Assembly (NCBI GenBank): GCA_030377945.1
Contig: JAUCGD010000012.1
Coordinates: forward strand, 1-40,917
From: Desulfobacterales bacterium HSG17
GTDB lineage: Bacteria > Desulfobacterota > Desulfobacteria > Desulfobacterales > Desulfococcaceae
DNA length: 40,917 nt
Direction of reading: 5' to 3'
The stretch's first letter is position 1; each line of letters opens with the position of its first letter. Positions 8,781-40,917 of the stretch are shown one piece after another. The notes below the pieces were generated by a model. It did not search any database. It was given only the letters and a program-made list of their open reading frames with translations, and was not told the origin of the DNA. The translations under genes and the position numbers were made by a program.

Positions 8781-8810
8781 TTAACTGAAAAAAGCCGTGT
8801 TCGTAATCAT

Positions 8811-8954
8811 GCCCTTGCTCTTGCCCTTGCCCTTGCTCGTGCTCGTGCTCGTGCTCTTAATCGAAAAAAGTTTTCGATTAAGAACAGAATTATAAGCATA
8901 GCTGGATAGCATTAAAAATGAGATTACGATTACGATTACGATTACGATTACGAT
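8811..8954. repeat. two hexamer tandem repeats flanking a perfect hairpin
   Basis: The gap 8781-8987 holds no credible gene. It contains eight hexamers of the GCCCTT/GCTCGT type at 8811-8858 and about 5.5 copies of GATTAC at 8922-8954. Between them is a 13-base inverted repeat (8855-8867 with 8871-8883, CTTAATCGAAAA / TTTTCGATTAAG, 3-base loop). The minus strand is open across it but codes only low-complexity peptide. The role is unknown: slippage-prone repeat or mobile palindrome. Confidence 0.85.
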
Positions 8955-8987: not shown

Positions 8988-9770
8988 ATGCACTCAAACA
9001 CACCTGAATCGCACCCACTCAGGGATGTAATTCTCATTGTGGATGACAACCCCAGGAACCTGTTTTCCATGAAAAAAGTATTGAGCAGCAAAAACAGGGA
9101 GATTGTTACAGCCGAATCCGGGCAGGCTGCCCTGATGTTTCTTATGAAACATCAGGTTTCCCTTATTATCATGGATGTCCAGATGCCTGAAATGGACGGT
9201 TTTGAAACGGTTCAGTTTATATTGCAGGATCAGCGCCATGCAGAAGTTCCCATCCTTTTTATTACGGCATTTTATCGTTCCGAAGATTATGTGAAATACG
9301 GTTTTGATGCCGGGGGGTATGACTACATAAGCAAACCGGTTGATGCCGAGCTTCTGTCTTCCAAAGTTAATGTTTTCCTCAAAATGAAGCGACGTCAGAA
9401 AGAATCTGAAAATATCTGCCGTCAATTAAGCAGGCATGCTGATGAATTAAGGCAGAAGAACAGGTATTTAACCGATATTCTCTCTTCCATGAGCCACGGC
9501 TTGATTATGGCGGATACAAAAGCAAGAATTAAAACCGTAAACAGGGCCGCATTATTTCTGCTGGGATACAATGAAAAAGAAGTAACCGGAAAAAACGTAT
9601 CCCATATTTTTGAAGATGGAGATTTGATGATCCGGGATAATTTTTCACATAAAGAAAAGATTGCCGTAACACATGATGGTGAGAAAATTCCTGTGATAAT
9701 ATCAGCCTCGGTCATGAGAGATGAAGCAGGAAACAATTGCGGGACAGTCCTGGTAATAAGGGGAAAATGA
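8988..9770 (+). CDS. receiver-PAS protein at the head of the Kai cluster
   Basis: The protein has 260 residues and no kinase domain. The receiver (~8-125) has LIVDDNPRNLFSM, acceptor Asp63 (IIMDVQMPEMDG), the switch TAFYRSED and Lys in SKPVD. A coiled linker leads to a PAS domain (~150-260) of the type that binds small ligands or dimerises (GLIMADTKARIKTVN, FLLGYNEKEVTGKNV). It ends soon after the PAS, as if a HisKA module were missing or supplied by a partner. The start has GGAAGGAG at 8974-8981. It is 74 bases ahead of the KaiC homologue and probably belongs to that cluster, possibly as the receiver of the kinase at 12337; that link is inference. Truncation of an ancestral REC-PAS-kinase is an alternative origin. 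Confidence 0.88.
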   Translation: MHSNTPESHPLRDVILIVDDNPRNLFSMKKVLSSKNREIVTAESGQAALMFLMKHQVSLIIMDVQMPEMDGFETVQFILQDQRHAEVPILFITAFYRSEDYVKYGFDAGGYDYISKPVDAELLSSKVNVFLKMKRRQKESENICRQLSRHADELRQKNRYLTDILSSMSHGLIMADTKARIKTVNRAALFLLGYNEKEVTGKNVSHIFEDGDLMIRDNFSHKEKIAVTHDGEKIPVIISASVMRDEAGNNCGTVLVIRGK

Positions 9771-9775
9771 AGTAT

Positions 9776-9791
9776 AAGCCCCGATGGGGCT
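9776..9791. repeat. GCCCC palindrome after the REC-PAS gene
   Basis: AAGCCCCGATGGGGCT lies 5 bases after the stop codon. It has the same GCCCC-NNN-GGGGC core as the REP-like family at 21397, 28146 and 31136, but here the ATATTTGTAG tail is absent. It could form a short mRNA hairpin; no T tract follows, so it is not a convincing terminator. Confidence 0.6.
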
Positions 9792-9844
9792 GAAATCGGA
9801 ATTCCATGCAATTCGTTATTATATTTTAACATAGGAGACAACAT

Positions 9845-11950
9845 ATGACAGATCAGCAAAACAAAATATCCCTGGCAAAAATCAGCTCAGGTATTGCGGG
9901 GCTGGATGAAATCCTGGAAGGCGGTTTTCCTGTTGGACGCACGACTATTATCAACGGGGGGCATGGCAGCGGCAAGAGTTTAATAAGTTTGGAATTTCTT
10001 TATCGCAATGCCCTGAAAGGCAAAGCAGGTATTTATATCACATTTGAAGAAAAAGCCCTTCGGGTAAGGCAGAATGCCATGACTCTTGGATGGGATTTGC
10101 AGGTATTGGAAAATCAGGGCAATTTATATTTACTGGATATATTCATGAACCCAGAAACTGCAATTTCCGGTAATTTTAATCTTAAAGGAATGCTGGCAAT
10201 GATTGAAGGGCTTACAAATCAAATGGATGCAAAACAGATTGTGCTTGACGGAATTGATTCTCTTTTGCGTTTTTTTAATGATACACAGCGAGAACGGAGT
10301 GAACTGGAAAATCTCGGTGCATGGCTTAACGAACGGGAACTGACTGCCATAATAACCGCCAAGAAATCGGAAAGCCTGAAACAAACGGAAAATTACGATT
10401 ATCTTGATTTCATGGCTGACTGCGTAATCCATGCAGACCAGCGGATTGACGAGCAGATAAACACCCGCAGGATCAGAATTTCCAAATATCGGGGATCGAA
10501 TTTCGGCAACAATGAATATCCGTTTGTTATCACTGAAGACGGGATAGGCATCATACCTGTTTCAAAATCAGGTCTCAACTTCATGGAAACGGGACAATAT
10601 ATTTCAAGCGGTCAACCCGGATTTGATGAAATACTGGGAGGCGGTTATCGGCGCGGTTCATGTGTATTGATTGCCGGGGGAAGCGGAGCCGGAAAATCCA
10701 TTATTGCAGCCACTTTTACCCGCCATATATGCATGGCAGGAGAAAAAACTCTATATGTGAGCCTTGAAGAAGCCCGTGATTCTTTTATCGCCAATATGTT
10801 GAGCCCAGGCATTGATCTGAACCCTGCACTGAAAAACGGATCTATGAAATTTATTTCAAATATACCCGAATCCATGGGAGCTGAAGAACATCTGTTCAAT
10901 TTGAATAAACACATTGAAACTTTTAAACCGGATCATTTTATTCTTGATGCCATATCTGCCTGTGCCCGCATGGGAACAGCTCAGGTTGGGTTTGACTTTC
11001 TTATCCGTCTTGCAGGTATATGTAAAAGAAAAGGGATTACATGTATTTATACCAGTCAGACAGACATTAGCAGCGGACTCAGTAATATGAGCGGTAATGA
11101 CATATCCTCCCTGGTAGATTCCATGATCTTGCTCAACATGGCGGAAATCAGGGGGGAAATCAATCGCACCATGCTGGTTTTCAAATCCCGCGGCATGAAG
11201 CACTCAAACCAGTACAGGGAGTATTGTATCACTGATAATGGTATTCAGCTTCTGGAAGTGTATGTGGGAAAAGGCGGTGTTCTTACCGGAACGGAACGGC
11301 AGGAACAGGAGATAAAAGAAGAGACTGAACGCCGGCGCATGAAAAAAGAACTTGAACGGAAAAAGAGCGAACTTGCAATGAAAAAAACAGCCCTGGCTGC
11401 AAGCACATCTGCCCTGAATGCCGAGATGGATGTCCTTCGTGTGGAACTGGAGACCATGAAAATGGAAGGGGATTTATGGGAAAAGAGCCGCAGCCTCCGG
11501 GCAAAGATACGTGGACAGGAGATGATGATCCAGTCTCCGGAAGATGTAATGCAGGCAAAGAGTGAAAACACTGCTGCCGGGCTTGAATCCTTTCTTGAAA
11601 CAGTTAATGCACCGGTATTCTGCTTAAACAGGGAACTCTGTTTTACTCAATGGAGCCAGTCCATGGAACAGATAACAGATTATGCTGAGGATGAAGTAAT
11701 TGGCAAAAATCTGGATGATTTCATTCCGGCCAAGGCTAATGAATCTGTCATTGATGTTCTGGAAAATACAATAAACGGTATTGAAACATCTGCAAGTTTC
11801 AGGCTTTTGCTCAACTCCAAAAACGGAGAAACGGCAGCATTACTTTTAAATTCATCTGCCAGGCGGAATAATGAAGGAAAAATCACAGGGGCAATATGCG
11901 TTGGCCAGGACATCACAAATTTGCAAAACAGGAATGAAGAAATTCGGTAA
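9845..11950 (+). CDS. kaiC: KaiC-family double ATPase with C-terminal PAS domain
   Basis: The protein has 701 residues. Two RecA-like KaiC domains come first. The first (~10-240) has Walker A GGHGSGKS (Lys44), catalytic Glu68-Glu69 (YITFEEK) and Walker B IVLDGIDSLL. The second (~250-480) has GGSGAGKS (Lys284), Glu308-Glu309 (YVSLEEARD) and FILDAISACARM. The segment ISSLVDSMILLNMAEIRGE aligns with cyanobacterial KaiC around its autophosphorylation pair Ser431/Thr432; here the pair is Ser421/Ser422. After the core come VYVGKGGVLTG, a charged coiled coil (~490-560) and a PAS domain (~578-697) not found in cyanobacterial KaiC. KaiC forms ATP-driven hexamers that time or gate output. KaiB follows at once; no KaiA is visible. 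Whether it oscillates cannot be told from sequence. Confidence 0.93.
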   Translation: MTDQQNKISLAKISSGIAGLDEILEGGFPVGRTTIINGGHGSGKSLISLEFLYRNALKGKAGIYITFEEKALRVRQNAMTLGWDLQVLENQGNLYLLDIFMNPETAISGNFNLKGMLAMIEGLTNQMDAKQIVLDGIDSLLRFFNDTQRERSELENLGAWLNERELTAIITAKKSESLKQTENYDYLDFMADCVIHADQRIDEQINTRRIRISKYRGSNFGNNEYPFVITEDGIGIIPVSKSGLNFMETGQYISSGQPGFDEILGGGYRRGSCVLIAGGSGAGKSIIAATFTRHICMAGEKTLYVSLEEARDSFIANMLSPGIDLNPALKNGSMKFISNIPESMGAEEHLFNLNKHIETFKPDHFILDAISACARMGTAQVGFDFLIRLAGICKRKGITCIYTSQTDISSGLSNMSGNDISSLVDSMILLNMAEIRGEINRTMLVFKSRGMKHSNQYREYCITDNGIQLLEVYVGKGGVLTGTERQEQEIKEETERRRMKKELERKKSELAMKKTALAASTSALNAEMDVLRVELETMKMEGDLWEKSRSLRAKIRGQEMMIQSPEDVMQAKSENTAAGLESFLETVNAPVFCLNRELCFTQWSQSMEQITDYAEDEVIGKNLDDFIPAKANESVIDVLENTINGIETSASFRLLLNSKNGETAALLLNSSARRNNEGKITGAICVGQDITNLQNRNEEIR

Positions 11951-11952
11951 TG

Positions 11953-11963
11953 AAGGAGGTGAT
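11953..11963 (+). promoter_or_regulatory. very strong Shine-Dalgarno site of kaiB
   Basis: AAGGAGGTGAT matches the anti-Shine-Dalgarno end of 16S rRNA over 11 bases and sits 2 bases before the kaiB ATG. It is by far the longest match among the starts in the window. It fits a need for more KaiB than KaiC, since in known systems KaiB binds KaiC as a ring of several subunits (inference). The spacing is unusually short for so long a match. Confidence 0.8.
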
Positions 11964-11965
11964 AA

Positions 11966-12286
11966 ATGGAATCAGCAGACACTTGTACTCCCAACATAAT
12001 TAAATGCTCCAAAAATATTGAATATGATCTTCAGCTCTTTATTGCAGGAAAAGATCCGGTCTCGGTACAGGCACTTAAAAATATTCAAATGATATGTGAA
12101 AAACATTTAAAAGGAAGTTATCAGCTTCAGGTGACTGACATAGTAAAGGACTTCCAGGAAGCCGTGAAAAACAGGGTAATGATAACACCCATGTTAATTA
12201 TGAAGTTGGATTCTGCAAGAGTAACCATTATCGGCAACCTGAATGATACCCAAAAAGTACTGACAGAACTGGGAGTGGAAGAATAA
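11966..12286 (+). CDS. kaiB: KaiB
   Basis: This is a 106-residue protein of the KaiB family, a thioredoxin-like protein that in known systems binds phosphorylated KaiC. Recognisable features are the first strand YDLQLFIAGKDPVSVQAL, the helix NIQMICEKHLKGSYQLQV and the conserved ITPMLIMK Pro motif. The C-terminal IIGNLNDTQKVLTELGVEE matches the usual (I/L)GDLSDTEKVL pattern. The length is normal for a stand-alone KaiB. It starts 15 bases after the KaiC stop behind a very strong ribosome-binding site and is followed 50 bases later by a hybrid kinase. The order KaiC-KaiB-kinase suggests a timing or stress module in which KaiC/KaiB state is read by that kinase; the sequence itself shows only the linkage. 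Confidence 0.93.
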   Translation: MESADTCTPNIIKCSKNIEYDLQLFIAGKDPVSVQALKNIQMICEKHLKGSYQLQVTDIVKDFQEAVKNRVMITPMLIMKLDSARVTIIGNLNDTQKVLTELGVEE

Positions 12287-12336
12287 CCCCGGCAAAAAAT
12301 TTAAATTTCCTATACAATTAAAAAGGAAATAATAAT

Positions 12337-13935
12337 ATGACTATTGCTGAACCAACACATAAAGAACCGGAAGAACGGATTCCTGCATTTGAGGAAACCC
12401 AGGAAAGCTATAAGCGTATTGTTAATAAAACTAAGTCCGGGCTTATGATTGTTGATAAAAATGGCATTGTGCAATTTGCCAACCCTTCCATGAAATCCCT
12501 TTTAAGCTTTTACGGGGAGCTGCCGGGCAATCAGTTTGGGATTCCCCTGACTAGTAATTCACAAACCGAAGTCAGGACAGTGCTGGAAGACGGAAGCCTT
12601 GGCAATGCTGAAATGGATGTAACAGAAATAACATGGGAAAATGAACAATGCTATCTTGTAATGCTTCATGATATCACAGATCAGAAGAAAGCAGAAATCG
12701 CCCTGGAGCTGGAACGAGCCTCCCTTGCCAAACGTGTGGAAGAACGAACAAGAGAACTATCCGCAGCAAATGCCAAACTGGAAAGAACCGCACGTCTCAA
12801 AGACGAATTCCTGGCTAATATGAGCCATGAACTACGCACACCGCTGACATCCATACTGGGCATGACCGAGGCACTCCAGGAGCAGGTTTTCGGACCAATG
12901 AATGAAAAAGAACTTAGTTCTTTAAACAGAATTGAGCAAAGCGGCAGGCACCTTCTCAATTTGATAAACGATATACTGGATCTATCCAAAATAGAAGCCG
13001 GAAAAATCGAACTGGACATGACCCGGATTTCAGTTGAAGCAATATGCCGGACATGCATAAACATGATAAAACAGCAGACACATAAAAAAAGGATTAAATT
13101 GAATGTCTCAATTGACAAAAACCTGAAATATATTCGGGCAGACATGCTGCGTCTAAAACAGATCCTGGTGAACCTTCTCAACAATGCGGTTAAATTCACG
13201 CCCGAAGAAGGTGAGATCAACCTTAATGCAGATGAAAAAAGCACCCTTGGAACTATTGAATTTACCGTGCAGGATACAGGTATCGGAATCCCTGAAAAGG
13301 ATATGGAAACTTTATTTCAACCTTTTGTGCAGGTTGACGGCAGCAAATCCCGCCATCATGAAGGCACGGGCCTTGGGCTTTCACTTGTATCCCGACTGAC
13401 AGAGATGCACGGAGGCAGCGTATCATTAATCAGCAAGATGGGACAGGGCAGCCAATTTACTGTTTCTTTACCACTGGATAGTGTCCCCCAAAATGAAAAA
13501 AAACAGATAACTGTGGAAAATCCACAGGCGTCTTCAAATATCTCATGTATCAAAAATACAACAATCCTCCTGACTGATGATAATCAATCCAATATTGAGA
13601 CACTGGGAAACTATTTATCAGCTAAAGGCTGCCAGGTCATCACTGCCGGTGACGGATACCAGGCTTTGCAGCAGGCAAAAGAAAAAAACCCCGATATTAT
13701 CCTCATGGATATACAGATGCCGGGAATGGACGGCATGAAAGCAACACGGAGAATTCGGGCAGACAAAAACCTGAAACATATCCCTGTCATAGCCCTGACA
13801 GCACTGGCCATGCCCGATGACCGTGAACAATGTATAAAAGCCGGTGCAAATGAATACATGGCCAAACCTGTCAAATTAAAAAAACTGGTTGAGATGATAG
13901 AGAAATTATTAAAAACGGAGAGAAAACAGAAATAA
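12337..13935 (+). CDS. PAS hybrid histidine kinase of the Kai cluster
   Basis: This is a 532-residue soluble protein. It has a PAS domain (~22-120, SGLMIVDKNGIVQFANPSM), a coiled linker and HisKA with His164 (EFLANMSHELRTPL). HATPase (~265-380) has DTGIGIPEKD and GTGLGLSLVS. The C-terminal receiver (~408-525) has TDDNQSN, acceptor Asp458 (IILMDIQMPGMDG), ALTALAMP and Lys in MAKPVK. It lies 50 bases after kaiB and has AAAGGAAAT as ribosome-binding site, so it is probably part of the same transcript. In cyanobacteria the kinase SasA reads KaiC through a KaiB-like sensor domain. This protein has PAS instead, so any direct KaiC contact is only a hypothesis. Its DHp/receiver cassette is close to those of the kinases downstream. 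Confidence 0.92.
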   Translation: MTIAEPTHKEPEERIPAFEETQESYKRIVNKTKSGLMIVDKNGIVQFANPSMKSLLSFYGELPGNQFGIPLTSNSQTEVRTVLEDGSLGNAEMDVTEITWENEQCYLVMLHDITDQKKAEIALELERASLAKRVEERTRELSAANAKLERTARLKDEFLANMSHELRTPLTSILGMTEALQEQVFGPMNEKELSSLNRIEQSGRHLLNLINDILDLSKIEAGKIELDMTRISVEAICRTCINMIKQQTHKKRIKLNVSIDKNLKYIRADMLRLKQILVNLLNNAVKFTPEEGEINLNADEKSTLGTIEFTVQDTGIGIPEKDMETLFQPFVQVDGSKSRHHEGTGLGLSLVSRLTEMHGGSVSLISKMGQGSQFTVSLPLDSVPQNEKKQITVENPQASSNISCIKNTTILLTDDNQSNIETLGNYLSAKGCQVITAGDGYQALQQAKEKNPDIILMDIQMPGMDGMKATRRIRADKNLKHIPVIALTALAMPDDREQCIKAGANEYMAKPVKLKKLVEMIEKLLKTERKQK

Positions 13936-13984: not shown

Positions 13985-14056
13985 AACCACAGATTACACA
14001 GATTTTCACAGATTAAAATCTTAACATATCTGTGTTGATCTGTGTAATCTGTGGTT
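13985..14056. repeat. CACAGATT trimeric hairpin repeat
   Basis: Perfect 19-base arms AACCACAGATTACACAGAT (13985-14003) and its complement (14038-14056) enclose an inner pair CACAGAT / ATCTGTG. Each arm is three CACAGAT units 9-10 bases apart. The 223-base gap 13936-14158 holds nothing else recognisable apart from a weak 11-codon frame at 14113. It has the same plan as the CACGAAT hairpins at 35941 and 40459. Confidence 0.85.
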
Positions 14057-14158: not shown

Positions 14159-17134
14159 ATGGAAAAAAAACCAACATATCAGGAATTGGAACAACGGGTT
14201 AAAGAATTGGAAAACAAAGCCATCAATTGTGACCAATTAACAGGGAAAATGGAAACAATTTTTGATTTTTCTCTGGATATGATCTGTTCCGGTAATTTGG
14301 ATGGTTATTTTACCAGGACAAATCCCTCTTTTGAGAGAATACTCGGTTATAATAAAAAAGAGCTTCTTGAAAACCCTTTCCTCTTTTTCGTGCATGATGA
14401 AGACGTAGAAAAAACAAAAAAGGCTTTGGCTGAAGCAGTAAATGGAAAAAAAGAACTCTTTGTTGAGAACAGGTACAAGTGTATTGACGGTTCATGCAAA
14501 TGGATAGAATGGAAAGTGCTGGTAAAAGCTCAAGAAAACAGATTTATTGCTGTCGGCCGGGACATCACCGAACGCAGGCAGGCTGATGAATTGCTGTTAA
14601 AGAGTGAAGAACGTTTTAAGCATCTCCTGAACTCAGTTGATAATGTGATCTGGGCAGCCACATTAGATGGCTCTATGTTATACATCAATAAGGCGGTTGA
14701 ACAGATCTACGGCAGAACTGTCAGCGAATTCATGGAAAATAGTAACATGTGGTATGAGGTCATTCATCCCGGGGACCGGGAAAGAGTGATAAAAAAGTCA
14801 AGGGAATTGTTCAATTTGGGAAAAAGCGTCAATGAGTACCGCATCCTGCGGCCCGATGGTGAAATTAGATGGCTGTACGACAAAAAAAATGTTGTATTGG
14901 ACAAACAGGGAAATCCTATTCAGATAGGCGGCATAGCTACGGATATCACGGAAAAAGTTCTTTCTGAAAAAAAGCTTGCAGAATCTATTAGTGACTTGAA
15001 ATTATCCAACGAACAGTCGATAGCTTACGCAAGGGATCTCCGCAAAGAAAATGAAGAACGCAAACGTGCAGAGAATGATCTGAAGAATGAGATAAGAGAA
15101 CATATGGAGACAAAAAACTTTCTTGACCGCATTATAGAACAGTCTCCCCTGGCTACCTGGATTGCAGACAGCAAAGGAACCCTGATTCGAACCAATAAGG
15201 CAGAACGGGACCTTATGAATATACGAGATGAGGAAGTAGTTGGTAAGTATAACATATTTGAAGATAATATTATAAAAAGCCAGGGGGTTATACCCTTAGT
15301 CAGGAAAGCTTTTGAAGGAGAGCCTGTCAATTTCCACCTTAAATGGAATGGTAAGAATTATACTTCCCTTGATATTGAAAAATTACGCAATCTAATGCTT
15401 GATATCACCATGTACCCCATATTCGATGCTTCGCGCAAAATTTCAAATGTTGTGATACAGCAGTCTGATATTACTGAAACCGACAAAGCTAACAGAGAAC
15501 GTCTCAAAGCGGAACAGGGATTAAATAGACTAGCCGCAGAACTGGCGCTGCTGATTGATACTGCCAATGCGCCCATATTCGGTGTGGATTACCACGGCAA
15601 TATCAACGAGTGGAACCAGTGTGCTGAAAAAATTACCGGGTTCAGCAAAAAAGAAGTTAAAGGCAAAAATATGGTCTCCGAGTATATCACCATCGATTAT
15701 AGAAAATCGGTAAGCCTTGTCCTGGACAGGGCAATAAAAGGCAAAGAAACATCCAATTACGAATTCCCGATTTTCACTAAATCCGGGAAACGTCTGATGG
15801 TGCTTTTAAACGCCAATACAAGACGAGATTCCCAGGGCAATGCCATAGGCGTTATCGGGGTGGGTCAAGACATAACCGAGCTGAATGATTATAGGGAAAA
15901 TCTGGAAAACCTTGTAGAACAAGGAACAAAAGAATTGCGAATCACCAATGCCGAACTTGCCCGTGCCAACCGCCTGAAAGATGAATTCCTGGCTAATATG
16001 AGCCATGAACTCCGTACACCCCTTACAGCTATTCTGGGCATGTCCGAGGCCCTTCTTGAACAGGTTTACGGCCCCCTGAATGAAAAACAGGCTAATTCAC
16101 TCAGCCGCGTTGAAAGCAGCGGGCAGCATCTTCTTAACCTTATTAACGACATCCTGGATCTGTCAAAAATTGAAGCAGGTAAAATGGATCTGGAAATCAG
16201 CAGGATTTCCGTTGAATCCGTGTGCAGGGCAAGTCTGCGAATGATAGAAGACAGTGCGCAAAAGAAAAACCAAAAACTAAGTCTGAGCATTGACAGCAGA
16301 TTACAGCATATCATGGCTGACATGCTGCGCTTAAAACAGATACTTGTCAACCTGTTAATTAATGCTGTCAAATTCACCCCGGAGGGTAAAAAAATAAGTC
16401 TTGAAGTAAATTGCGACCCTGGTGAAAACATTGTCGAATTTGCTGTCCTGGATACGGGAATCGGTATTTCAAGAGAAAATATGAAAAAACTGTTTAAACC
16501 CTTTGTTCAGTTGGATGGCAGTTTCAAACGGAAACAGGAGGGTACTGGATTGGGACTGGCCCTTGTGTATAAACTGGCTGAAATGCACGGCGGCAGCGTA
16601 AAAGTAGAAAGCGAGGAAGGTAGATACAGCCGGTTTGCCGTAATGCTGCCCTGGCATAATAACAAAAACCTTCAAAATTTTGAAAATCCCGGGGGTCTTG
16701 TAAAACGTGCCAGGATACTGATGGCAGACGACAATATTGCTAATATCGAAACCATTTCCGACTATTTAAAAACAAAATTATATGATGTATTGCTTGTCTA
16801 TGACGGAGCCGAAGCAGTAAATCTGACCATTAAAGAAAAACCTGATTTGATCCTTATGGACATCCAGATGCCTGTTATGGACGGCATGGAAGCTATAAAA
16901 TCAATCAGGAAATGGGAAAATGATAAAAACCATGAAACCGCATATAAAAAAATTCCGATAATTGCCCTGACAGCACTTGCCATGCCCGGAGACCGGGAAC
17001 AATGCCTTGAGGTCGGTGCTGATGATTATATCAGCAAGCCTTTTGGATTGAAAAATCTGGTCAAAAGGATAGAGGAATTGCTGAACCGCAATGATTTAAC
17101 GGCCGCAGAGAAACATGAAATTGCACAGACATAG
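14159..17134 (+). CDS. four-PAS hybrid histidine kinase
   Basis: This is a 991-residue soluble hybrid kinase. A short N-terminal coil (MEKKPTYQELEQRVKELENK), typical of deltaproteobacterial PAS kinases, leads to PAS1 (~31-140), PAS2 (~150-266), PAS3 (~321-443) and PAS4 (~464-580). Each PAS ends near a (G/S)xDITE-type exit motif. Then come HisKA (His616, EFLANMSHELRTPL), HATPase (~715-830, DTGIGISREN, GTGLGLALV) and a receiver (~851-970) with MADDNIANI, Asp901 (LILMDIQMPVMDG) and Lys in ISKPFG. The ligands of the PAS domains cannot be told. The DHp region is nearly identical to those of the genes at 17194, 25567, 26837 and 28483. The start has AAGG about 10 bases upstream. The next gene's start lies about 60 bases downstream. 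Confidence 0.93.
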   Translation: MEKKPTYQELEQRVKELENKAINCDQLTGKMETIFDFSLDMICSGNLDGYFTRTNPSFERILGYNKKELLENPFLFFVHDEDVEKTKKALAEAVNGKKELFVENRYKCIDGSCKWIEWKVLVKAQENRFIAVGRDITERRQADELLLKSEERFKHLLNSVDNVIWAATLDGSMLYINKAVEQIYGRTVSEFMENSNMWYEVIHPGDRERVIKKSRELFNLGKSVNEYRILRPDGEIRWLYDKKNVVLDKQGNPIQIGGIATDITEKVLSEKKLAESISDLKLSNEQSIAYARDLRKENEERKRAENDLKNEIREHMETKNFLDRIIEQSPLATWIADSKGTLIRTNKAERDLMNIRDEEVVGKYNIFEDNIIKSQGVIPLVRKAFEGEPVNFHLKWNGKNYTSLDIEKLRNLMLDITMYPIFDASRKISNVVIQQSDITETDKANRERLKAEQGLNRLAAELALLIDTANAPIFGVDYHGNINEWNQCAEKITGFSKKEVKGKNMVSEYITIDYRKSVSLVLDRAIKGKETSNYEFPIFTKSGKRLMVLLNANTRRDSQGNAIGVIGVGQDITELNDYRENLENLVEQGTKELRITNAELARANRLKDEFLANMSHELRTPLTAILGMSEALLEQVYGPLNEKQANSLSRVESSGQHLLNLINDILDLSKIEAGKMDLEISRISVESVCRASLRMIEDSAQKKNQKLSLSIDSRLQHIMADMLRLKQILVNLLINAVKFTPEGKKISLEVNCDPGENIVEFAVLDTGIGISRENMKKLFKPFVQLDGSFKRKQEGTGLGLALVYKLAEMHGGSVKVESEEGRYSRFAVMLPWHNNKNLQNFENPGGLVKRARILMADDNIANIETISDYLKTKLYDVLLVYDGAEAVNLTIKEKPDLILMDIQMPVMDGMEAIKSIRKWENDKNHETAYKKIPIIALTALAMPGDREQCLEVGADDYISKPFGLKNLVKRIEELLNRNDLTAAEKHEIAQT

Positions 17135-21370: not shown

Positions 21371-21526
21371 CACCCCAAACATATTTGCAGCAAAAAAGCC
21401 CCATCGGGGCGTCATATTTGCAGCAAATCAAAAACAGATACCGATTAAGCCCCATCGGGGCGTCATATTTGCAGCAAATCAAAAACAGATACCAATTAAG
21501 CCCCATCGGGGCGTCATATTTGTAGC
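21371..21526. repeat. REP-like tandem array, 51-bp period
   Basis: Three copies of AGCCCCATCGGGGCGTCATA followed by TTTGCAGCAAA start at 21397, 21448 and 21499, exactly 51 bases apart. A degenerate fourth copy (CCCCAAACATATTTGCAGC) starts near 21372. The 51-base period is a multiple of three, so the plus strand stays open through the array and codes KPHRGVIFAANQKQIPI repeats; I do not regard this as a gene. The array fills the gap between two kinase-region genes and is the same family as at 28143, 28434 and 31136. Confidence 0.9.
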
Positions 21527-21580
21527 ATTTGATGCATCTGGTTGTGAATGGAAATTATCATCATAAGGGAGGAACATGAA

Positions 21581-28240: not shown

Positions 28241-28417
28241 ATGGCAAATTCATACATACAAATCTATCTGCATTACGTATTTGCCGTGCAAGGCAGGCAA
28301 AATTTAATTCACGAAAACAACCATGAAGGGGAAATAAAATCTAATTCATCCCGATTCATCAATAAAAAACAATGGATCATGGGAAAATTTCAATGGCAAA
28401 AAGGTTATGGGGCTTGA
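28241..28417 (+). pseudogene. remnant of a REP-associated (IS200/Y1-type) transposase, middle deleted
   Basis: This is a 58-codon frame behind a strong GGAGGAGG site. Its start, MANSYIQIYLHYVFAVQGRQ then NLI, matches the N-terminal strand of Y1 transposases of the REP-associated (RAYT) group. From about codon 38, RFINKKQWIMGKFQWQKGYGA, it matches the region close to their C-terminus. The ~80-100 residues normally between, with the HUH metal-binding motif, are missing, and the frame stops before the helix that carries the catalytic Tyr. It must be inactive. GCCCC-palindrome repeats flank it, direct copies upstream and an inverted copy downstream, as expected for a transposase that moves such palindromes. 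Recognition is by pattern memory, not a search. Confidence 0.75.
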
Positions 28418-28433
28418 TCTGTGGTTGTGGGTG

Positions 28434-28466
28434 TTTTGCTACAAATATATCGGCCCGATGGGGCTT
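28434..28466 (-). repeat. inverted REP-like copy downstream of the transposase remnant
   Basis: Read on the minus strand this is AAGCCCCATCGGGCCGATAT with a TTGTAGCAAAA tail, the same repeat as at 31136 but inverted relative to the two copies at 28143-28220. The remnant transposase thus lies between oppositely oriented copies. The core has one base change (GGGCC for GGGGC). Confidence 0.85.
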
Positions 28467-28482
28467 GGAAGGTGAAAATACT

Positions 28483-31245
28483 GTGAAAAATAATACAAAA
28501 AACAAATATGTTGAAGAAGATATTTCCAAATTGCGCAAAAAAGCTGAAAAAATTTTTCTGGAACAGCAGGATGATTATCCTGATCCTGAAAAATTATCAC
28601 CCGCCAAAACAAAAAGTCTTATCAATGAACTGAGAATCCGGCAGATTGAACTGGAAATACAGAATAAGGAACTGCGTCAGGAACGCAGCTTTGATAAGAA
28701 AGATGGCAGAGAATCCGACAGTTTTCAGGCTGAGGAACGATACCGCACTTTTTTTGAAAACATACTCAGCGGCATAGCAGTATATGAGCCGGATGGTGAA
28801 GGAAATGATTTTATTATCAAAGATATGAACAAGCTCGGTGAAAAACTGTCCAAAGTCAGGCGCAGGGATATTATCGGCAGAAAACTCACCGCAATTTTTC
28901 CAGGGATCAAAGAGTTCGGACTACTTGAGGTGTTGCAGCGGGTAAATATAACCGGGAAACCGGAATTTGCTGAAGCCGGCATCTATGAAGATGATAAACA
29001 TTCTCCTACCTGGTATGAAAACTCGGTGTTCAAGCTGCCTGCCGGAGAAATAGCTGCTGTTTACAATGATGTTTCAAAACGTATGAATGACGCAAATGTC
29101 CTCAGGGAATCAGAAAAGAAATACAAATCCCTTTTTGAAAATTCCTTGATGTCAGTTATTCAGGCCAGTGTTGACGGCAGAATAATTCTGGCAAATCAGA
29201 AAGGTGCCGAGTTATTCGGTTATAAAAATGTTAATGAATTTGTTAATGAATTTGATCCATCAAAAGCATATATCGGAAAACAAAGAGCTGACATGCTTGC
29301 ACAGCTCAAACAGGAAGGTTTTTTTACAAACAGGGAACAGCAGTTTTTAAGCAAAAACGGCACTTCATTCTGGATGCTGCATTCTTCATGCCTGGACAGG
29401 GAATCAGGTATAATAACAAGTGTCGGATTGGATATTACAGCCTGGAAAAAAACTGAAAAAGAGAGAGAACGTCTGCACAATATAATAGAAAAATCATCAT
29501 TTTTTATTAGTTGGGCAGATGTAGAAAAAAATATAAAATATATTAACCGGGCCGGCCGTAAAATGGCAGGCATTGCAGAAGAAGATGATTTAACCTGCCA
29601 AATTATAGAGAATTTTCATACGAAAAAAGGATTCTCTGTAACCCAAAACACAGGTATTCCCCATGCTATTGAAAAGGGTTTCTGGGAAGGTGAGTCAGAG
29701 CTTTTATCACATGACGGCCGAATAATACCTGTTTCTCAAACTATTATATCCCATTATGATGAAGATGGGAATATAGAGTATATAGCAACTATTATCCAGG
29801 ATATTAACAACATTAAAAAAAAGGAGCAGGAATTAAAGGATGCTGCCGCTGAACTGTTCAAACACAAACAAAGCCTGGAAAGAACAGTAAAACATCGTAC
29901 CGCAGATATTCGCATTACAAATGCCAAACTTAAGCGAGCCAATCGCCTGAAAGATGAATTCCTTGCAAATATGAGCCATGAACTGCGCACACCCCTTACA
30001 TCCATATTAGGCATGTCTGAAGCCCTTCTTGAGCAGGTTTACGGCCCTGTTAATGAAAAACAGATAAAATCACTCAGGCGGGTTAAAAGCAGCGGAAATC
30101 ACCTTCTTAACCTGATTAACGACATCCTGGATCTGTCAAAAATTGAAGCAGGTAAAATGGAGCTGAATATTACGCAGGTTTCTGTTCATGAAATATGCCG
30201 GGCAAGCCTTCAAATGGTAAAAGAAACTGCTCAAAAGAAAAATCAGAAACTCACTTTGAGCATTGATATCGGATTGAAGTATATATATGCTGACATACTG
30301 CGATTAAAGCAGATATTGGTAAATCTCTTAATGAATGCTGTTAAATTCACACCTGAACACGGAAAAATCGGTTTTGAAGTAAATTGTAAACCAGAACTGG
30401 AAATAGTGGAATTTGCAGTATGGGATACAGGCATTGGCATTTCCGAAAAGGATATGAAAAAACTGTTTAAACCTTTTGTACAATTGGATGGAAGTTTGAC
30501 ACGGAAAAATGATGGAACAGGACTGGGCCTTGCTCTTGTGTTTAAACTGGCTGATCTGCATGGCGGAAGTGTAAAAGTTGAAAGTGAAGAAGATAAATGC
30601 TCCAGATTTTCTCTAATGCTGCCCTGGCATCCTGACATAAATCTCCCTGGTATTGAATATCAGAAAGATAAAGAGACGAATAAAAACAAACAAACTCAAG
30701 AAAAATATGGAAATGCTGCAAAACATGCAAAAATACTGATGGCAGATGACAATATTTCCAACATTAAAACAATAACAGATTACCTGGAAGCAAAATCATA
30801 TGATGTAATGCTTGCCCATGACGGCTCCGAAGCTGTAAAACTGGCAATAAAAGAAAAGCCGGATTTAATTCTAATGGACATCCAGATGCCGGTCATGGAC
30901 GGCCTGGAAGCAATAAGAGAGATCAGGAAATGGGAAGAAACAGGGAATATCCAAATCAAAATCCCCATTATTGCCCTGACAGCTCTTGCCATGTCAGGTG
31001 ACCGTGAACAATGCCTTGAAGCAGGCGCGAATGAATACATGAGCAAACCGGTCAGGTTGAAAGATTTGATTGAAATGATTGATAAATTGCAGGTAACCGC
31101 CAGCAGCAAAAACCCAGAGGAAAAGAACCCAATAAAGCCCCATCGGGGCGGCATATTTGTAGAAAATGACAAAAAAACCAATAAAGCCCCATCGGGGCGG
31201 CATATTTGTAGCAAAACCGGCAAAAGCATGATTTCAGGTTTATGA
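28483..31245 (+). CDS. three-PAS hybrid histidine kinase with a repeat-derived C-terminal tail
   Basis: The protein has 920 residues from the GTG at 28483, preceded by GGAAGGTG at a good distance. The frame is open to an ATG at 28372, but those codons overlap the transposase remnant and an inverted REP copy, so they are probably not native. An N-terminal coiled segment (LSPAKTKSLINELRIRQIEL, seen in many PAS kinases) is followed by PAS1 (~80-190), PAS2 (~215-325) and PAS3 (~330-455). Then come HisKA (His499, EFLANMSHELRTPLTSIL), HATPase (DTGIGISEKD, GTGLGLALV) and a receiver with MADDNISNI, Asp799 (LILMDIQMPVMDG) and Lys in MSKPVR. The last ~35 residues (KPHRGGIFVENDKK..) are coded by two REP-like copies at 31136-31214 that have replaced or extended the native end. 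Confidence 0.9.
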   Translation: MKNNTKNKYVEEDISKLRKKAEKIFLEQQDDYPDPEKLSPAKTKSLINELRIRQIELEIQNKELRQERSFDKKDGRESDSFQAEERYRTFFENILSGIAVYEPDGEGNDFIIKDMNKLGEKLSKVRRRDIIGRKLTAIFPGIKEFGLLEVLQRVNITGKPEFAEAGIYEDDKHSPTWYENSVFKLPAGEIAAVYNDVSKRMNDANVLRESEKKYKSLFENSLMSVIQASVDGRIILANQKGAELFGYKNVNEFVNEFDPSKAYIGKQRADMLAQLKQEGFFTNREQQFLSKNGTSFWMLHSSCLDRESGIITSVGLDITAWKKTEKERERLHNIIEKSSFFISWADVEKNIKYINRAGRKMAGIAEEDDLTCQIIENFHTKKGFSVTQNTGIPHAIEKGFWEGESELLSHDGRIIPVSQTIISHYDEDGNIEYIATIIQDINNIKKKEQELKDAAAELFKHKQSLERTVKHRTADIRITNAKLKRANRLKDEFLANMSHELRTPLTSILGMSEALLEQVYGPVNEKQIKSLRRVKSSGNHLLNLINDILDLSKIEAGKMELNITQVSVHEICRASLQMVKETAQKKNQKLTLSIDIGLKYIYADILRLKQILVNLLMNAVKFTPEHGKIGFEVNCKPELEIVEFAVWDTGIGISEKDMKKLFKPFVQLDGSLTRKNDGTGLGLALVFKLADLHGGSVKVESEEDKCSRFSLMLPWHPDINLPGIEYQKDKETNKNKQTQEKYGNAAKHAKILMADDNISNIKTITDYLEAKSYDVMLAHDGSEAVKLAIKEKPDLILMDIQMPVMDGLEAIREIRKWEETGNIQIKIPIIALTALAMSGDREQCLEAGANEYMSKPVRLKDLIEMIDKLQVTASSKNPEEKNPIKPHRGGIFVENDKKTNKAPSGRHICSKTGKSMISGL
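31136..31214. repeat. two GCCCC-palindrome REP-like copies inside a coding end
   Basis: AGCCCCATCGGGGCGGCATA with a TTTGTAG tail starts at 31136 and again at 31185, 49 bases apart. Both lie within the 3' end of the kinase gene that stops at 31245. Because 49 is not a multiple of three, the two copies are read in different frames (KPHRGGIFV, then KAPSGRHICS). Confidence 0.9.
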
Positions 31246-35940: not shown

Positions 35941-36012
35941 AACCACGAATGACACGAATGACACGAATTAAATACTAATATAATATTCGTGTCATTCGTG
36001 TTATTCGTGGTA
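35941..36012. repeat. CACGAATGA trimeric hairpin repeat
   Basis: The left arm AACCACGAATGACACGAATG then ACACGAAT (35941-35968) pairs with 35985-36012 (ATTCGTGTCATTCGTGTTAT then TCGTGGT). Each arm is three CACGAAT units 9 bases apart. The repeat fills the gap between the AIM24 and M48 genes and is a single copy of the unit that is tandemly repeated at 40459-40917. Confidence 0.88.
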
Positions 36013-37613: not shown

Positions 37614-40460
37614 ATGCAGGCAAAAACAAATGTAATAGCTCCAGGGGCAAGAGTGGTTATTCGGGATGCTGAGTGGCTGGTTCGCAAGGTTTTACCCACA
37701 TCTACGGGCGGGCTTTCACTTACTGTCACTGGAATATCAGAACTGGTAAAAGACAGGGAAGCCATATTTCTTGATGAGATTGACAAGGATATCCAGGTGC
37801 TTGATCCGGCAGATACAAAGCTGGTTGCAGACAGGTCTCCTTCCTATCAAAAATCCCTGCTCTATATGGAATGTCTTTTGCGGCAGGCTCCCCCGACTGA
37901 TGAAAATCTTTATTCAGGCCATCTGGCAGCAATGGATCTTGTATCTTACCAGCTTGAGCCAGCTATCCAGGCTCTTGAGCAGCCCCGCCAGCGCATTCTT
38001 ATTGCAGATGCGGTCGGGCTTGGCAAGACCCTGGCCTGCGGCATCCTGGTCAGTGATCTTATCAGGCGGGGACGGGGCAGGCGTATCCTGGTTCTGGCTG
38101 TTAAAAGTATGCTTACCCAGTTTCAAAAAGAAATGTGGAGCAGATTCACCATTCCCCTTGTGCGCCTTGATTCAACCGGCATTCAGCGTGTTCGTTCCCG
38201 TATTCCCACTAAACACAACCCTTTTTATTATTTTGACAGGGCAATTATTTCCATTGATACCCTGAAACAGGATACAGAATACCGCACATACCTGGAAAAT
38301 GCTTTTTGGGATATTATTGTAATTGATGAAGCCCATAATGTTGCACAGCGGGGAAAAGGTTCATCCCAGAGAGCAAAACTGGCAAAACTCCTGTCATCCA
38401 GATCAGACACCCTTATAATGCTGTCTGCAACTCCCCATGACGGCAGAGCCAGGAGCTTTGCCAGTCTGATGAACATGCTTGATCCTACTGCTATTGCCAA
38501 CCCTGATGAATACAGCCCTGAAGATATAAAAGGGCTTTTTATCCGCAGATTTAAAAAAGACATCCAGGCTCAGGTGCAGAATGCCTTTAAAAAAAGAAAG
38601 ATTTCCAAAGCCTATTGCAAAGCTGATGATACAGAGGAAAAAGCTTTTGAAATTCTGGCAGGTCTGGAATTTAAAAAAGGAAATCAGCGCAGAGGAGCAG
38701 GCCAATTATTTAAAACAACTCTTGAAAAAGCTTTGTTTTCAAGCCCTGCTGCATGTCTGATAAGCATAAAAAACCGGGTAGCCCGCCTGAAAAAAGATGA
38801 AAATAATGACTCGGATATTGCCGTACTTGAGGCTTTTGCTGCCTGTCTTGAACTTATCACCCCTGATAAATTTTCAAAATATCAAAAACTCCTGTCAGTT
38901 ATCCAGGATAAGAAAAACGGTTTTGGATGGACTGGAAAAGTCTGCAATGAACGCATGGTTATTTTTACGGAACGAATTGAAACCCTGCACTTTCTTTATG
39001 AAAATTTAGCCAGAGACCTTAAATTAAAAGACCATAAATATAAAAACAGTCAAATTGAAATACTTCACGGAGGCATGTCTGATGTGGATCAGCAGAAAAT
39101 TGTTGAGGATTTTGGCAAGGAAGAAGCTCCTGTCAGGCTTTTGATTGCTTCTGACGTGGCTTCAGAAGGCATAAACCTTCACTACCTGAGCCACCATCTT
39201 ATCCATTTTGACATTCCCTGGTCTCTTATGGTTTTCCAGCAGAGAAACGGCAGGATTGACCGTTACGGCCAGGAAAAAACTCCGTACATTCTTTACCTGT
39301 TGAATCAAAGCACCAATGAAAAAATCAGGGGAGATATGCGTATCCTGGAACTTCTTATTAAAAAAGACGAGGAAGCAGTTAAAAATATCGGGGACCCTTC
39401 GGCACTTATGGGAGTCTATGATATTGACGAAGAAGAAAAAATAACAGCAAATGCCATTGAAAAGAGAAAAAGCGAAATAGAATTTGAAAAAAGCCTGGAT
39501 AAAACAGGCACAAAAGGTTTTAATCCTTTTGAAATAATTATGAAAGGTGCATCTCCTGCCAAAGACCCAAAAGATAAAATAAAAACAATGGCTTCCCTGT
39601 ACACAGATGATTTCCAATATCTTAAAGCTGCTGTTCATTTTTTAAGTCAGACAGAAATGCTTCAATCTGAGTTTACAGATGATAATCAGGAAGTTACCCT
39701 GACCGCAACAGATGATTTAAAGCAGAGTCTTAAATATATTTTTCCAAAAGAAGCATGGCCCAAAGATGATGTTTTTGTGCTTTCCCCGGATACAGAAACA
39801 ATACAAAAAGAAATTAAGCAAAGCCGCAAAAATGAAAATGCCTGGCCCCAAATTCACTATCTCTGGCAGCATCACCCTGTTTTTGAATGGATAAATAACA
39901 AGGTTGCTGCCGGATTTGCCCGGCATGAAGCACCTGTGTTATCACTGCAAAATGCAATACCTGCCAGGGAAACCGTGTTTATCATTGCCGGACTCATCCC
40001 CAACCTTAAAAGCCATCCCCTTGTCCATCAATGGTTTGGAATAAGGTTCAAGGATGAAAAATTTTTGAAAATCGAAACATTTGAAGAAATTTTGGCAGCA
40101 ACAGGGCTTGGCAGGACAATTTTTCCAAACCCGGAAACAGAGGTTAAAACTGATTCTATCCAAAAGCTTATTCCGTCGGCTGTTAAACATGCAAGGCAAT
40201 ATATGAGCGCACTGAGAAAAGATTTTGAAAACAGGATAAATATAAAACTTGACCTGCATCTCAATGCACTGGAAGGTCTCAAGAAAAAGCACCATGAACA
40301 GATTGAAACGTTTTATACAGGAAAAAAGCAAATCAGCCAAAAAGAACAGGAAAAAAGGGAAATTGACCGCACCTTTGACGAGTTTATGAAATGGGTTGAA
40401 GAGACCATGACAACTGAGGATAAACCTTTTATACAGGTTGTGGCTGTTTTAGTTTTTTAA
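37614..40460 (+). CDS. SNF2/RapA-type superfamily 2 helicase, DrmD-like
   Basis: The protein has 948 residues. An N-terminal segment (~1-100, VIAPGARVVIRDAEWLVRKV) precedes an SF2 helicase core. The core has Walker A ADAVGLGKT (Lys138), DEAH (residues 238-241, VIDEAHN), SATPH, a C-terminal lobe with ILHGGMS, IASDVASEGINLHYL and the arginine-finger motif QQRNGRIDRYGQ. The Walker A context is ADAVGLGKT where most relatives have ADEVGLGKT. The C-terminal ~350 residues are charged and of unknown fold. The domain order and N-terminal segment resemble DrmD, the SNF2 helicase that opens class 1 DISARM defence operons, but stand-alone helicases of this group are also common and no other drm gene is in the window. 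The stop TAA falls in the first bases of the 86-bp repeat array, so the native end may have been altered. AAGGA lies 6 bases before the ATG. Confidence 0.82.
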   Translation: MQAKTNVIAPGARVVIRDAEWLVRKVLPTSTGGLSLTVTGISELVKDREAIFLDEIDKDIQVLDPADTKLVADRSPSYQKSLLYMECLLRQAPPTDENLYSGHLAAMDLVSYQLEPAIQALEQPRQRILIADAVGLGKTLACGILVSDLIRRGRGRRILVLAVKSMLTQFQKEMWSRFTIPLVRLDSTGIQRVRSRIPTKHNPFYYFDRAIISIDTLKQDTEYRTYLENAFWDIIVIDEAHNVAQRGKGSSQRAKLAKLLSSRSDTLIMLSATPHDGRARSFASLMNMLDPTAIANPDEYSPEDIKGLFIRRFKKDIQAQVQNAFKKRKISKAYCKADDTEEKAFEILAGLEFKKGNQRRGAGQLFKTTLEKALFSSPAACLISIKNRVARLKKDENNDSDIAVLEAFAACLELITPDKFSKYQKLLSVIQDKKNGFGWTGKVCNERMVIFTERIETLHFLYENLARDLKLKDHKYKNSQIEILHGGMSDVDQQKIVEDFGKEEAPVRLLIASDVASEGINLHYLSHHLIHFDIPWSLMVFQQRNGRIDRYGQEKTPYILYLLNQSTNEKIRGDMRILELLIKKDEEAVKNIGDPSALMGVYDIDEEEKITANAIEKRKSEIEFEKSLDKTGTKGFNPFEIIMKGASPAKDPKDKIKTMASLYTDDFQYLKAAVHFLSQTEMLQSEFTDDNQEVTLTATDDLKQSLKYIFPKEAWPKDDVFVLSPDTETIQKEIKQSRKNENAWPQIHYLWQHHPVFEWINNKVAAGFARHEAPVLSLQNAIPARETVFIIAGLIPNLKSHPLVHQWFGIRFKDEKFLKIETFEEILAATGLGRTIFPNPETEVKTDSIQKLIPSAVKHARQYMSALRKDFENRINIKLDLHLNALEGLKKKHHEQIETFYTGKKQISQKEQEKREIDRTFDEFMKWVEETMTTEDKPFIQVVAVLVF

Positions 40461-40917
40461 CCACGAATAACACGAATAACACGAATGATAAAAAAAAGGT
40501 TTTATTCGTGTTATTTGTGTCATTCGTGGTTTCATATTGTTTTTAACCACGAATAACACGAATAACACGAATGATAAAAAAAGGGTTTTATTCGTGTAAT
40601 TTGTGTTATTCGTGGTTTCATATTGTTTTTAACCACGAATAACACGAATAACACGAATGATAAAAAATGGGTTTTATTCGTGTAATTTGTGTTATTCGTG
40701 GTTCCATATTGTTTTTAACCACGAATAACACGAATAACACGAATGATAAAAAATGGGTTTTATTCGTGTAATTTGTGTTATTCGTGGTTCCATATTGTTT
40801 TTAACCACGAATAACACGAATAACACGAATGATAAAAAAAAGGTTTTATTCGTGTAATTTGTGTAATTCGTGGTTCCATATTGTTTTTAACCACGAATAA
40901 CACGAATAACACGAATG
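40459..40917. repeat. tandem array of 86-bp hairpin units running off the window
   Basis: Five complete units and the start of a sixth have CCACGAAT beginning at 40461, 40547, 40633, 40719, 40805 and 40891. The period is exactly 86 bases every time. Each unit has a left arm of three CACGAAT units 9 bases apart, an A-rich loop with GG(T)TTT, an inverted right arm, and a spacer TTYCATATTGTTTTTAA. The units differ only by substitutions; units 3 and 4 appear identical. No unique spacers are present and no gene is seen in this stretch. Confidence 0.95.

What the first reader, a model, noticed from the sequence alone, without database searches (positions are those of the whole stretch)
8988..13935. 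KaiC-PAS / KaiB / hybrid-kinase module outside cyanobacteria
Seen: a double-domain KaiC with both Walker A lysines (44, 284) and both Glu pairs (68/69, 308/309). A Ser-Ser pair (421/422) stands where cyanobacterial KaiC has Ser431/Thr432. A PAS domain is fused to its end. KaiB follows behind an 11-base Shine-Dalgarno match, flanked by a REC-PAS protein and a PAS-kinase-REC hybrid. Known: KaiB/KaiC without KaiA occur in diverse bacteria as timers or stress regulators. Inference: the PAS fusion lets a ligand or redox signal act directly on KaiC, with the REC-PAS protein and the hybrid kinase as input and output in place of SasA/CikA/RpaA. In a presumably anaerobic sulfate-reducing lineage, such a module could serve diel or redox timing.
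Basis: partly seen in the sequence, partly recalled or inferred. Interest (0 to 1): 0.72.

Follow-up and report, generated by a model that had tools for sequence, protein, structure and literature searches.

The report
KaiC timer protein with PAS tail
A sulfate-reducer-like bacterium carries the usual KaiC-KaiB-kinase timer genes found in many bacteria, but its KaiC protein has a sensor-type (PAS) domain attached beyond the coiled-coil that, in a studied relative, controls how fast the timer resets.

Summary
Window 9845-11950 encodes a double KaiC with both Walker lysines, both Glu pairs and a Ser-Ser pair (421/422) that aligns with phosphosites Ser413/Ser414 of Rhodobacter sphaeroides KaiC. 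KaiB and a kinase-REC hybrid follow; a REC-PAS gene precedes. kaiC-kaiB-signalling gene is an ordinary, published arrangement (72 of 79, then 52 of 69 loci; PMC3164672). REC-PAS upstream is not conserved (0 of 74).

PAS follows over a floppy linker. Two further proteins share this build with three PAS each: Halobeggiatoa HSG11 and Desulfococcaceae HSG7. In the genome samples no match reached the PAS part; yet each protein search left one known fusion unlisted, so rarity is uncertain.

Best reading: a KaiBC phospho-timer whose PAS biases KaiC or docks partners. PAS has no His and no LOV-type Cys. New variant of a known kind; function and timing untested.

The parts
8988..9770 (+). REC-PAS protein (260 aa); first gene of the presumed kai transcription unit
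   Evidence: Pfam Response_reg 15-127 and PAS_9 170-257; 74-base gap to kaiC; not found upstream of kaiC in 74 related loci
9845..11950 (+). KaiC-coil-PAS protein, 701 aa
   Evidence: PF06745 x2, PAS; best solved relatives KaiC_RS 8dba/8fwi
9845..10579 (+). CI domain (residues about 1-245), Walker Lys44, Glu68/69
10580..11284 (+). CII domain (residues about 246-480), Walker Lys284, Glu308/309
11105..11110 (+). codons of Ser421-Ser422, equivalent to KaiC_RS Ser413/Ser414
11288..11506 (+). long C-terminal helix (residues 482-554), in the place of the KaiC_RS coiled coil
   Evidence: AlphaFold2 helix 482-554; Foldseek match to 8fwi_A over 564 columns, rmsd 9.5; heptad test inconclusive
11507..11536 (+). 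break or flexible linker between coil and PAS (residues 555-564)
   Evidence: pLDDT under 50 at 552-567; the stretch is also weakly conserved in HSG11 and HSG7
11537..11914 (+). N-cap helix (565-586) and PAS core (about 591-690)
   Evidence: the 50 listed PDB matches of the isolated model are mostly PAS and LOV entries
11953..11963 (+). 11-base Shine-Dalgarno match AAGGAGGTGAT before kaiB
11966..12286 (+). KaiB, 106 aa
   Evidence: PF07689 51.5 bits, cut-off 27; PDB KaiB matches over residues 20-102
12337..13935 (+). hybrid kinase: weak PAS, HisKA, HATPase, REC; 532 aa
13985..14056 (.). imperfect inverted repeat built on ACAGATT/AATCTGT; may mark the end of the presumed kai unit
   Evidence: read directly
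14159..17134 (+). next PAS-rich hybrid kinase; its last PAS before the kinase core is of the same subfamily as the KaiC PAS (37%)

Best explanation
This is a KaiB-KaiC phospho-timer module, apparently without KaiA, of the Rhodobacter sphaeroides mechanistic type. Shown: KaiC carries the two ATPase domains, the Ser-Ser sites and a long predicted C-terminal helix in the place of the KaiC_RS coil; PAS follows over a predicted flexible linker; kaiB and a hybrid kinase follow. Inferred from KaiC_RS: constitutive autophosphorylation, dodecamer through the coil, coil-driven dephosphorylation, KaiB binding to ADP-bound CI. Inferred and new: the PAS beyond the coil (through PAS-PAS contacts or contacts with the opposite CII) biases the coil state, and so the dephosphorylation rate, in response to a cell signal. 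The hybrid kinase reads KaiC or KaiB state and passes phosphate to REC domains, one perhaps being REC-PAS.
For: Best solved relative by sequence and by fold is KaiC_RS, alignment running into the coil. Helix 482-554, break, helix 565-586, PAS. In KaiC_RS, little dephosphorylation is seen without the coil, and the coil shifts register with phosphorylation (PMC10076222 sections 5, 7, 9, 10). Two more proteins keep coil then PAS in the same place. KaiB directly downstream in 72 of 79 loci and a signalling gene after it in 52 of 69.
Against: The linker is predicted disordered, so coil and PAS are not one rigid helix. The fold match to 8fwi has rmsd 9.5, so the helix does not lie as in KaiC_RS. A single-heptad test does not mark the coil: shuffles as good in 649 of 2000 (window), 625 (HSG7), 1884 (HSG11); KaiC_RS itself 164, P0003 108. 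Window KaiC falls outside the clade that holds KaiC_RS, so the mechanism is carried over a deep split. No cofactor motif was found. No expression or biochemistry.
Confidence: 0.42

Rival explanations
1. The PAS is a docking or dimerisation module, not a sensor: it recruits PAS kinases (the adjacent hybrid kinase, REC-PAS, or the kinase at 14159) to the KaiC ring, so the fusion hard-wires the output. (Odds of the rivals overlap and do not add to one.)
For: PAS has no His and no LOV cysteine (own alignment, motif recalled); sequence search of the PDB matches residues 579-692 to phytochrome B at chain positions 655-772, which I recall as PAS repeats without chromophore; neighbouring genes carry PAS domains, one of the same subfamily (37%); the HSG proteins carry three tandem PAS.
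Against: The PAS of the directly adjacent genes (hybrid kinase 16%, REC-PAS 19%) are not especially similar. No interaction data.
Confidence: 0.33
2. The PAS is a neutral addition: the module works like any other bacterial KaiBC system and the PAS does nothing specific.
For: Fusion is rare in the searches made; the window PAS is more diverged (37-43% to the HSG copies) than these are among themselves (65-92%); relatives without PAS keep the same gene order.
Against: Kept in three diverged proteins (window 46-47% identical to the other two overall; 49-50% over residues 9-549), in frame, and predicted to fold (mean pLDDT 82.9).
Confidence: 0.17
3. Not a timer at all: a KaiC-family stress or energy-state switch reading the ATP/ADP ratio.
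For: Legionella KaiC2 homologue is linked to stress response (PMC5520375, passages); KaiB-KaiC_RS complex formation depends inversely on ATP/ADP (PMC10076222 section 10).
Against: The sequence parts of the KaiC_RS hourglass are present; the two roles overlap and cannot be told apart from sequence.
Confidence: 0.25

Closest known systems
Rhodobacter sphaeroides KaiC_RS/KaiB_RS hourglass (8dba, 8fwi, 8fwj; PMC10076222)
   Same: Ser-Ser phosphosites, long C-terminal helix, KaiB; best match by sequence and fold
   Different: KaiC_RS (568 residues) ends after the coil; window KaiC adds PAS; 190 of 534 positions identical; separate clade
kaiC-kaiB-histidine kinase gene context of many bacteria (PMC3164672, passages)
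   Same: kaiC, kaiB, then a signalling gene
   Different: an extra REC-PAS gene upstream (0 of 74 loci) and PAS inside KaiC
KaiC-PASx3 proteins of Halobeggiatoa HSG11 (P0002) and Desulfococcaceae HSG7 (P0121)
   Same: KaiC, coil, weakly conserved break, PAS of one subfamily
   Different: three PAS instead of one; their gene neighbours could not be reached
Archaeal fusions of KaiC-family ATPases with REC and other signalling domains (PMC5847659, passages)
   Same: KaiC-family ATPase joined to signal domains
   Different: as far as those passages tell: KaiC-REC in six genera of Methanosarcinaceae, and divergent iKaiC with HalOD1; not double KaiC-coil-PAS with KaiB. The primary paper (PMC5717392) is not held, so PAS fusions may be described there
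Cyanobacterial KaiABC clock
   Same: KaiC double ATPase, KaiB
   Different: Ser-Ser not Ser-Thr, no KaiA in the window, below the TIGR02655 cut-off (307 against 546 bits)

Membership tests
KaiC (double-domain) | two KaiC/RecA-type ATPase domains with Walker A lysines | tested here: met
   PF06745 two stretches; Lys44 and Lys284 invariant in 40 rows
KaiC (double-domain) | catalytic Glu pairs in CI and CII | tested here: met
   Glu68/69, Glu308/309
KaiC (double-domain) | adjacent Ser/Thr phosphosites in CII | tested here: met
   Ser421/422 opposite S413/S414; Ser-Ser in 82 of 85 rows
KaiC (double-domain) | autophosphorylation and ATPase activity | not testable with these tools
   needs protein
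Cyanobacterial clock KaiC (TIGR02655) | score over curated cut-off | tested here: not met
   307.3 against 546.25 bits; PRK09302 (NF006799) is met, 515.5 against 408
KaiC_RS-type coiled-coil KaiC | C-terminal extension of about 50 residues that forms a helix after CII | tested here: met
   predicted helix 482-554; sequence and fold matches run into it
KaiC_RS-type coiled-coil KaiC | heptad coiled-coil signal in that extension | tested here: inconclusive
   649 of 2000 shuffles as good; KaiC_RS 164 of 2000
KaiC_RS-type coiled-coil KaiC | dodecamer held by the coil, register shift | not testable with these tools
   monomer models only
Clade that holds KaiC_RS (KaiC2-like; label mine) | place in the same clade | tested here: not met
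   KaiC_RS with 8 rows in one clade, window with 36 others in the other, both SH-aLRT 100, quick tree, midpoint root
KaiB | KaiB domain over Pfam cut-off | tested here: met
   51.5 against 27 bits
KaiB, circadian (TIGR02654) | score over curated cut-off | tested here: not met
   57.1 against 145.3 bits; PRK09301 59.4 against 110
KaiB | fold switching | not testable with these tools
   needs NMR or binding kinetics
LOV flavin PAS | adduct cysteine | tested here: not met
   Leu623 at that place by my own alignment; the motif is recalled, not from a call (for the residues)
heme PAS (FixL/DosP type) | proximal histidine (recalled) | tested here: not met
   no His in residues 559-701
KaiA-free system | no kaiA in the genome | tested here: inconclusive
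   no kaiA family among the 21 window proteins scanned, but no whole genome is held

The most novel reading that the evidence does not exclude
An environment-gated KaiC timer in one polypeptide: the PAS (three in HSG7/HSG11) sits beyond the tip of the KaiC coiled-coil bundle, and its signal-dependent (in the window protein perhaps thiol-dependent) rearrangement shifts the coil register over more than 100 A, directly setting the Ser421/422 dephosphorylation rate. It would steer KaiC from outside, as KaiA does in cyanobacteria, by a different part.
Probability: 0.18. Interest if true: 0.75.

Novelty: new variant of a known kind. Interest (0 to 1): 0.45.

Why it matters
In KaiC_RS the C-terminal coil is proposed as the built-in regulator that KaiA later superseded (PMC10076222). 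A natural KaiC with a sensor-type domain beyond that coil would show how such a timer might take in a signal other than the ATP/ADP ratio, and gives a ready construct (with and without PAS) to test whether the coil can be steered from its tip. It also points to such systems in bacteria named as sulfate reducers and sulfur oxidisers.

Tried and rejected
Heptad analysis could not tell the window coil from shuffles, nor KaiC_RS convincingly. A four-gene conserved module: rejected for REC-PAS. A single origin of the fusion: SH-aLRT 89 and 85 in quick trees but 63/28 in the one finished careful tree, which had fewer rows, so left open; the careful 46-row tree did not finish and I did not run it again. 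Long open frames in other genomes as hidden fusions: 15 stretches fetched, none has PAS in the KaiC frame. Neighbours of the HSG7 and HSG11 genes: not reached in 146 + 146 (overlapping) relatives, 5 with a match each time, none into the PAS part. Direct transfer of a PAS from the adjacent kinase into KaiC: not supported (16-19%; 37% only to a PAS of the gene beyond). Three cysteines (593, 599, 685) in the window PAS as a redox switch: not at these places in the HSG copies, kept only as part of the novel reading. Papers: none holds any of six KaiC-PAS phrases; wider searches (and, for sulfur bacteria, 34, 59, 86) listed nothing that I recognised as KaiC-coil-PAS; archaeal fusions appeared in one paper. 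The library is open-access only and most listed papers were seen as listings.
Full report
WHAT IS THERE. Four + strand genes run from 8988 to 13935 with gaps of 74, 15 and 50 bases: REC-PAS (260 aa), KaiC-PAS (701 aa), KaiB (106 aa), hybrid kinase (532 aa). Each start is preceded by a purine-rich ribosome-binding-like stretch; that of kaiB is the full 11-base AAGGAGGTGAT. The unit is set off by 207 bases upstream, holding hexamer repeats and a 12-base-pair palindrome, and by 223 bases downstream, holding an imperfect inverted repeat. Promoter-like matches are no more frequent than in shuffles (12 against a mean of 14.5). Terminator-like matches are more frequent (12 against 4.5, sd 2.4); ten are on the - strand, and the two on the + strand (9120-9132, 9131-9156) lie inside the REC-PAS gene, which, if real, would count against reading all four genes from one start. 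One transcription unit is thus inferred from spacing alone.

KAIC. Pfam gives two KaiC domains and a PAS. NCBIfam PRK09302 is passed, the cyanobacterial model TIGR02655 is not. Walker lysines, Glu pairs and Ser421/422 are invariant in a 40-row alignment, and 82 of 85 aligned rows read Ser-Ser (the 85 are the window, two other fusions, KaiC_RS as printed, and 81 ORFs from 80 loci). The closest solved chains by sequence are R. sphaeroides KaiC 8dba and 8fwi, aligned from residue 9 to 549, with the Ser pair opposite S413/S414 and their Glu mutants. Foldseek agrees: 8fwi_A first, E 5.8e-52, 564 columns, though with rmsd 9.5, while KaiC chains without the coil fit at about 3 over about 470 columns.

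COIL AND PAS. AlphaFold2 on 40 sequences (mean pLDDT 83.4) gives one helix 482-554, pLDDT under 50 at 552-567, helix 565-586, then PAS. KaiC_RS has a long tail in the same place; there it builds the dodecamer, its register shifts with phosphorylation, and without it little dephosphorylation is seen (PMC10076222, passages and sections 5, 7, 9, 10). So the PAS stands where a signal could reach the coil. But the link is predicted floppy, a heptad test is inconclusive (649 of 2000 shuffles as good for the window, 1884 for HSG11, 164 for KaiC_RS), and no multimer could be modelled.

HOW RARE. Tail length after residue 485 is 216 in the window, 468-469 in HSG11 and HSG7, and at most 104 in the other 82 rows, some of which are cut by contig ends or, for KaiC_RS, by the printed alignment. 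In whole-genome samples a KaiC match was found in 45 of 389 (order of the Magnetomorum genome), 45 of 389 (its class, largely the same genomes), 22 of 369 (class of an Ectothiorhodospiraceae genome, query HSG11), 33 of 281 (phylum of a Chloroflexi genome) and 37 of 246 (phylum of a Methanoperedens genome). No listed match reached the PAS part, at E cut-offs of 1e-60 or 1e-40; only two to four candidates per genome were scored, so further KaiC copies may be unseen. Among the best 120 listed of 787 homologues, only the window protein and HSG11 carry PAS by the precomputed Pfam domains. All this is a floor: one search did not list HSG7, from HSG11, did not list the window protein. A paper's abstract reports much gene exchange between filamentous sulfate reducers and giant sulfur oxidisers (PMC6390638, abstract), which would suit the hosts named; the word KaiC does not occur in that paper.

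KINSHIP. In trees on the KaiC part alone the three fusions group together with SH-aLRT 89 (72 rows) and 85 (46 rows), but only 63/28 in the finished careful tree (25 rows). One origin is possible, not shown. KaiC_RS falls with 8 rows that I call KaiC2-like, the window with the other 36. The likeness to KaiC_RS is thus one of build, not of closest descent.

NEIGHBOURS. Of 80 related loci, 79 have enough sequence after kaiC; 72 have kaiB there and 38 have two or more. Of 69 with kaiB and enough sequence after it, 52 have a kinase, PAS or REC gene next (38 with a kinase domain, 24 with kinase and REC in one protein). Of 74 with sequence upstream, 10 have a signalling gene directly upstream, 8 of them with REC, and none a REC-PAS protein. 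My domain models were built from window domains and a single KaiB, so remote ones may be missed. A 2011 paper already described kaiC-kaiB followed by a kinase or GGDEF/EAL gene (PMC3164672, passages).

PAS SUBFAMILY. The KaiC PAS is 37-43% identical to the HSG PAS copies and 37% to the last PAS of the kinase at 14159-17134; the other window PAS compared are 16-21%. It has no His and three Cys; after residue 559 HSG11 has one Cys and HSG7 two, elsewhere. The 50 listed Foldseek matches of the isolated model include heme (FixL, DosP), flavin (LOV, NifL) and other PAS at 13-26% identity, FixL first, so they do not tell a ligand.

HOST. The window is a signalling island.

VERDICT. Real, correctly read in its parts, mostly a known kind of operon; the new point is a PAS beyond the KaiC coil, shared with two other proteins. 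Sensor or adapter cannot be decided from sequence.

Noticed in passing
window 8810-8858, 8856-8882, 8922-8954: Hexamer tandem repeats (TGCCCT/TGCTCG and GATTAC) around a 12-bp-stem palindrome, just upstream of the REC-PAS gene.
   Followed up: partly
window 9120-9156: Two overlapping terminator-like hairpins on the + strand inside the REC-PAS gene.
   Followed up: no
window 13985-14056: Imperfect inverted repeat of ACAGATT units between two kinase genes.
   Followed up: no
window 40454-40917 and 35944-36009: 86-base unit with CACGAATAA motifs repeated 5.4 times up to the window end; a similar 9-base motif (CACGAATGA) repeats near 36 kb.
   Followed up: no
window 21396-21527 and 31122-31216: About 50-base repeats containing GCCCCATCGGGGC; the second lies at the end of the kinase ORF 28372-31245.
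   Followed up: no
L001 247-5654: Two different KaiCs flank one KaiB, followed by a PAS kinase; the contig has the length of one whose KaiCs are named Candidatus Magnetomorum.
   Followed up: no
L020 6652-8233: Several kaiB-like ORFs, two of them overlapping, behind one kaiC in a planctomycete.
   Followed up: no
window 69-33943: Most of the stretch encodes signalling proteins on one strand: chemoreceptor, CheR, REC proteins and ten proteins with histidine-kinase ATPase domains.
   Followed up: partly
window KaiC residues 593, 599, 685: Three cysteines in the PAS of the window KaiC, absent at these places from the HSG11 and HSG7 proteins.
   Followed up: partly
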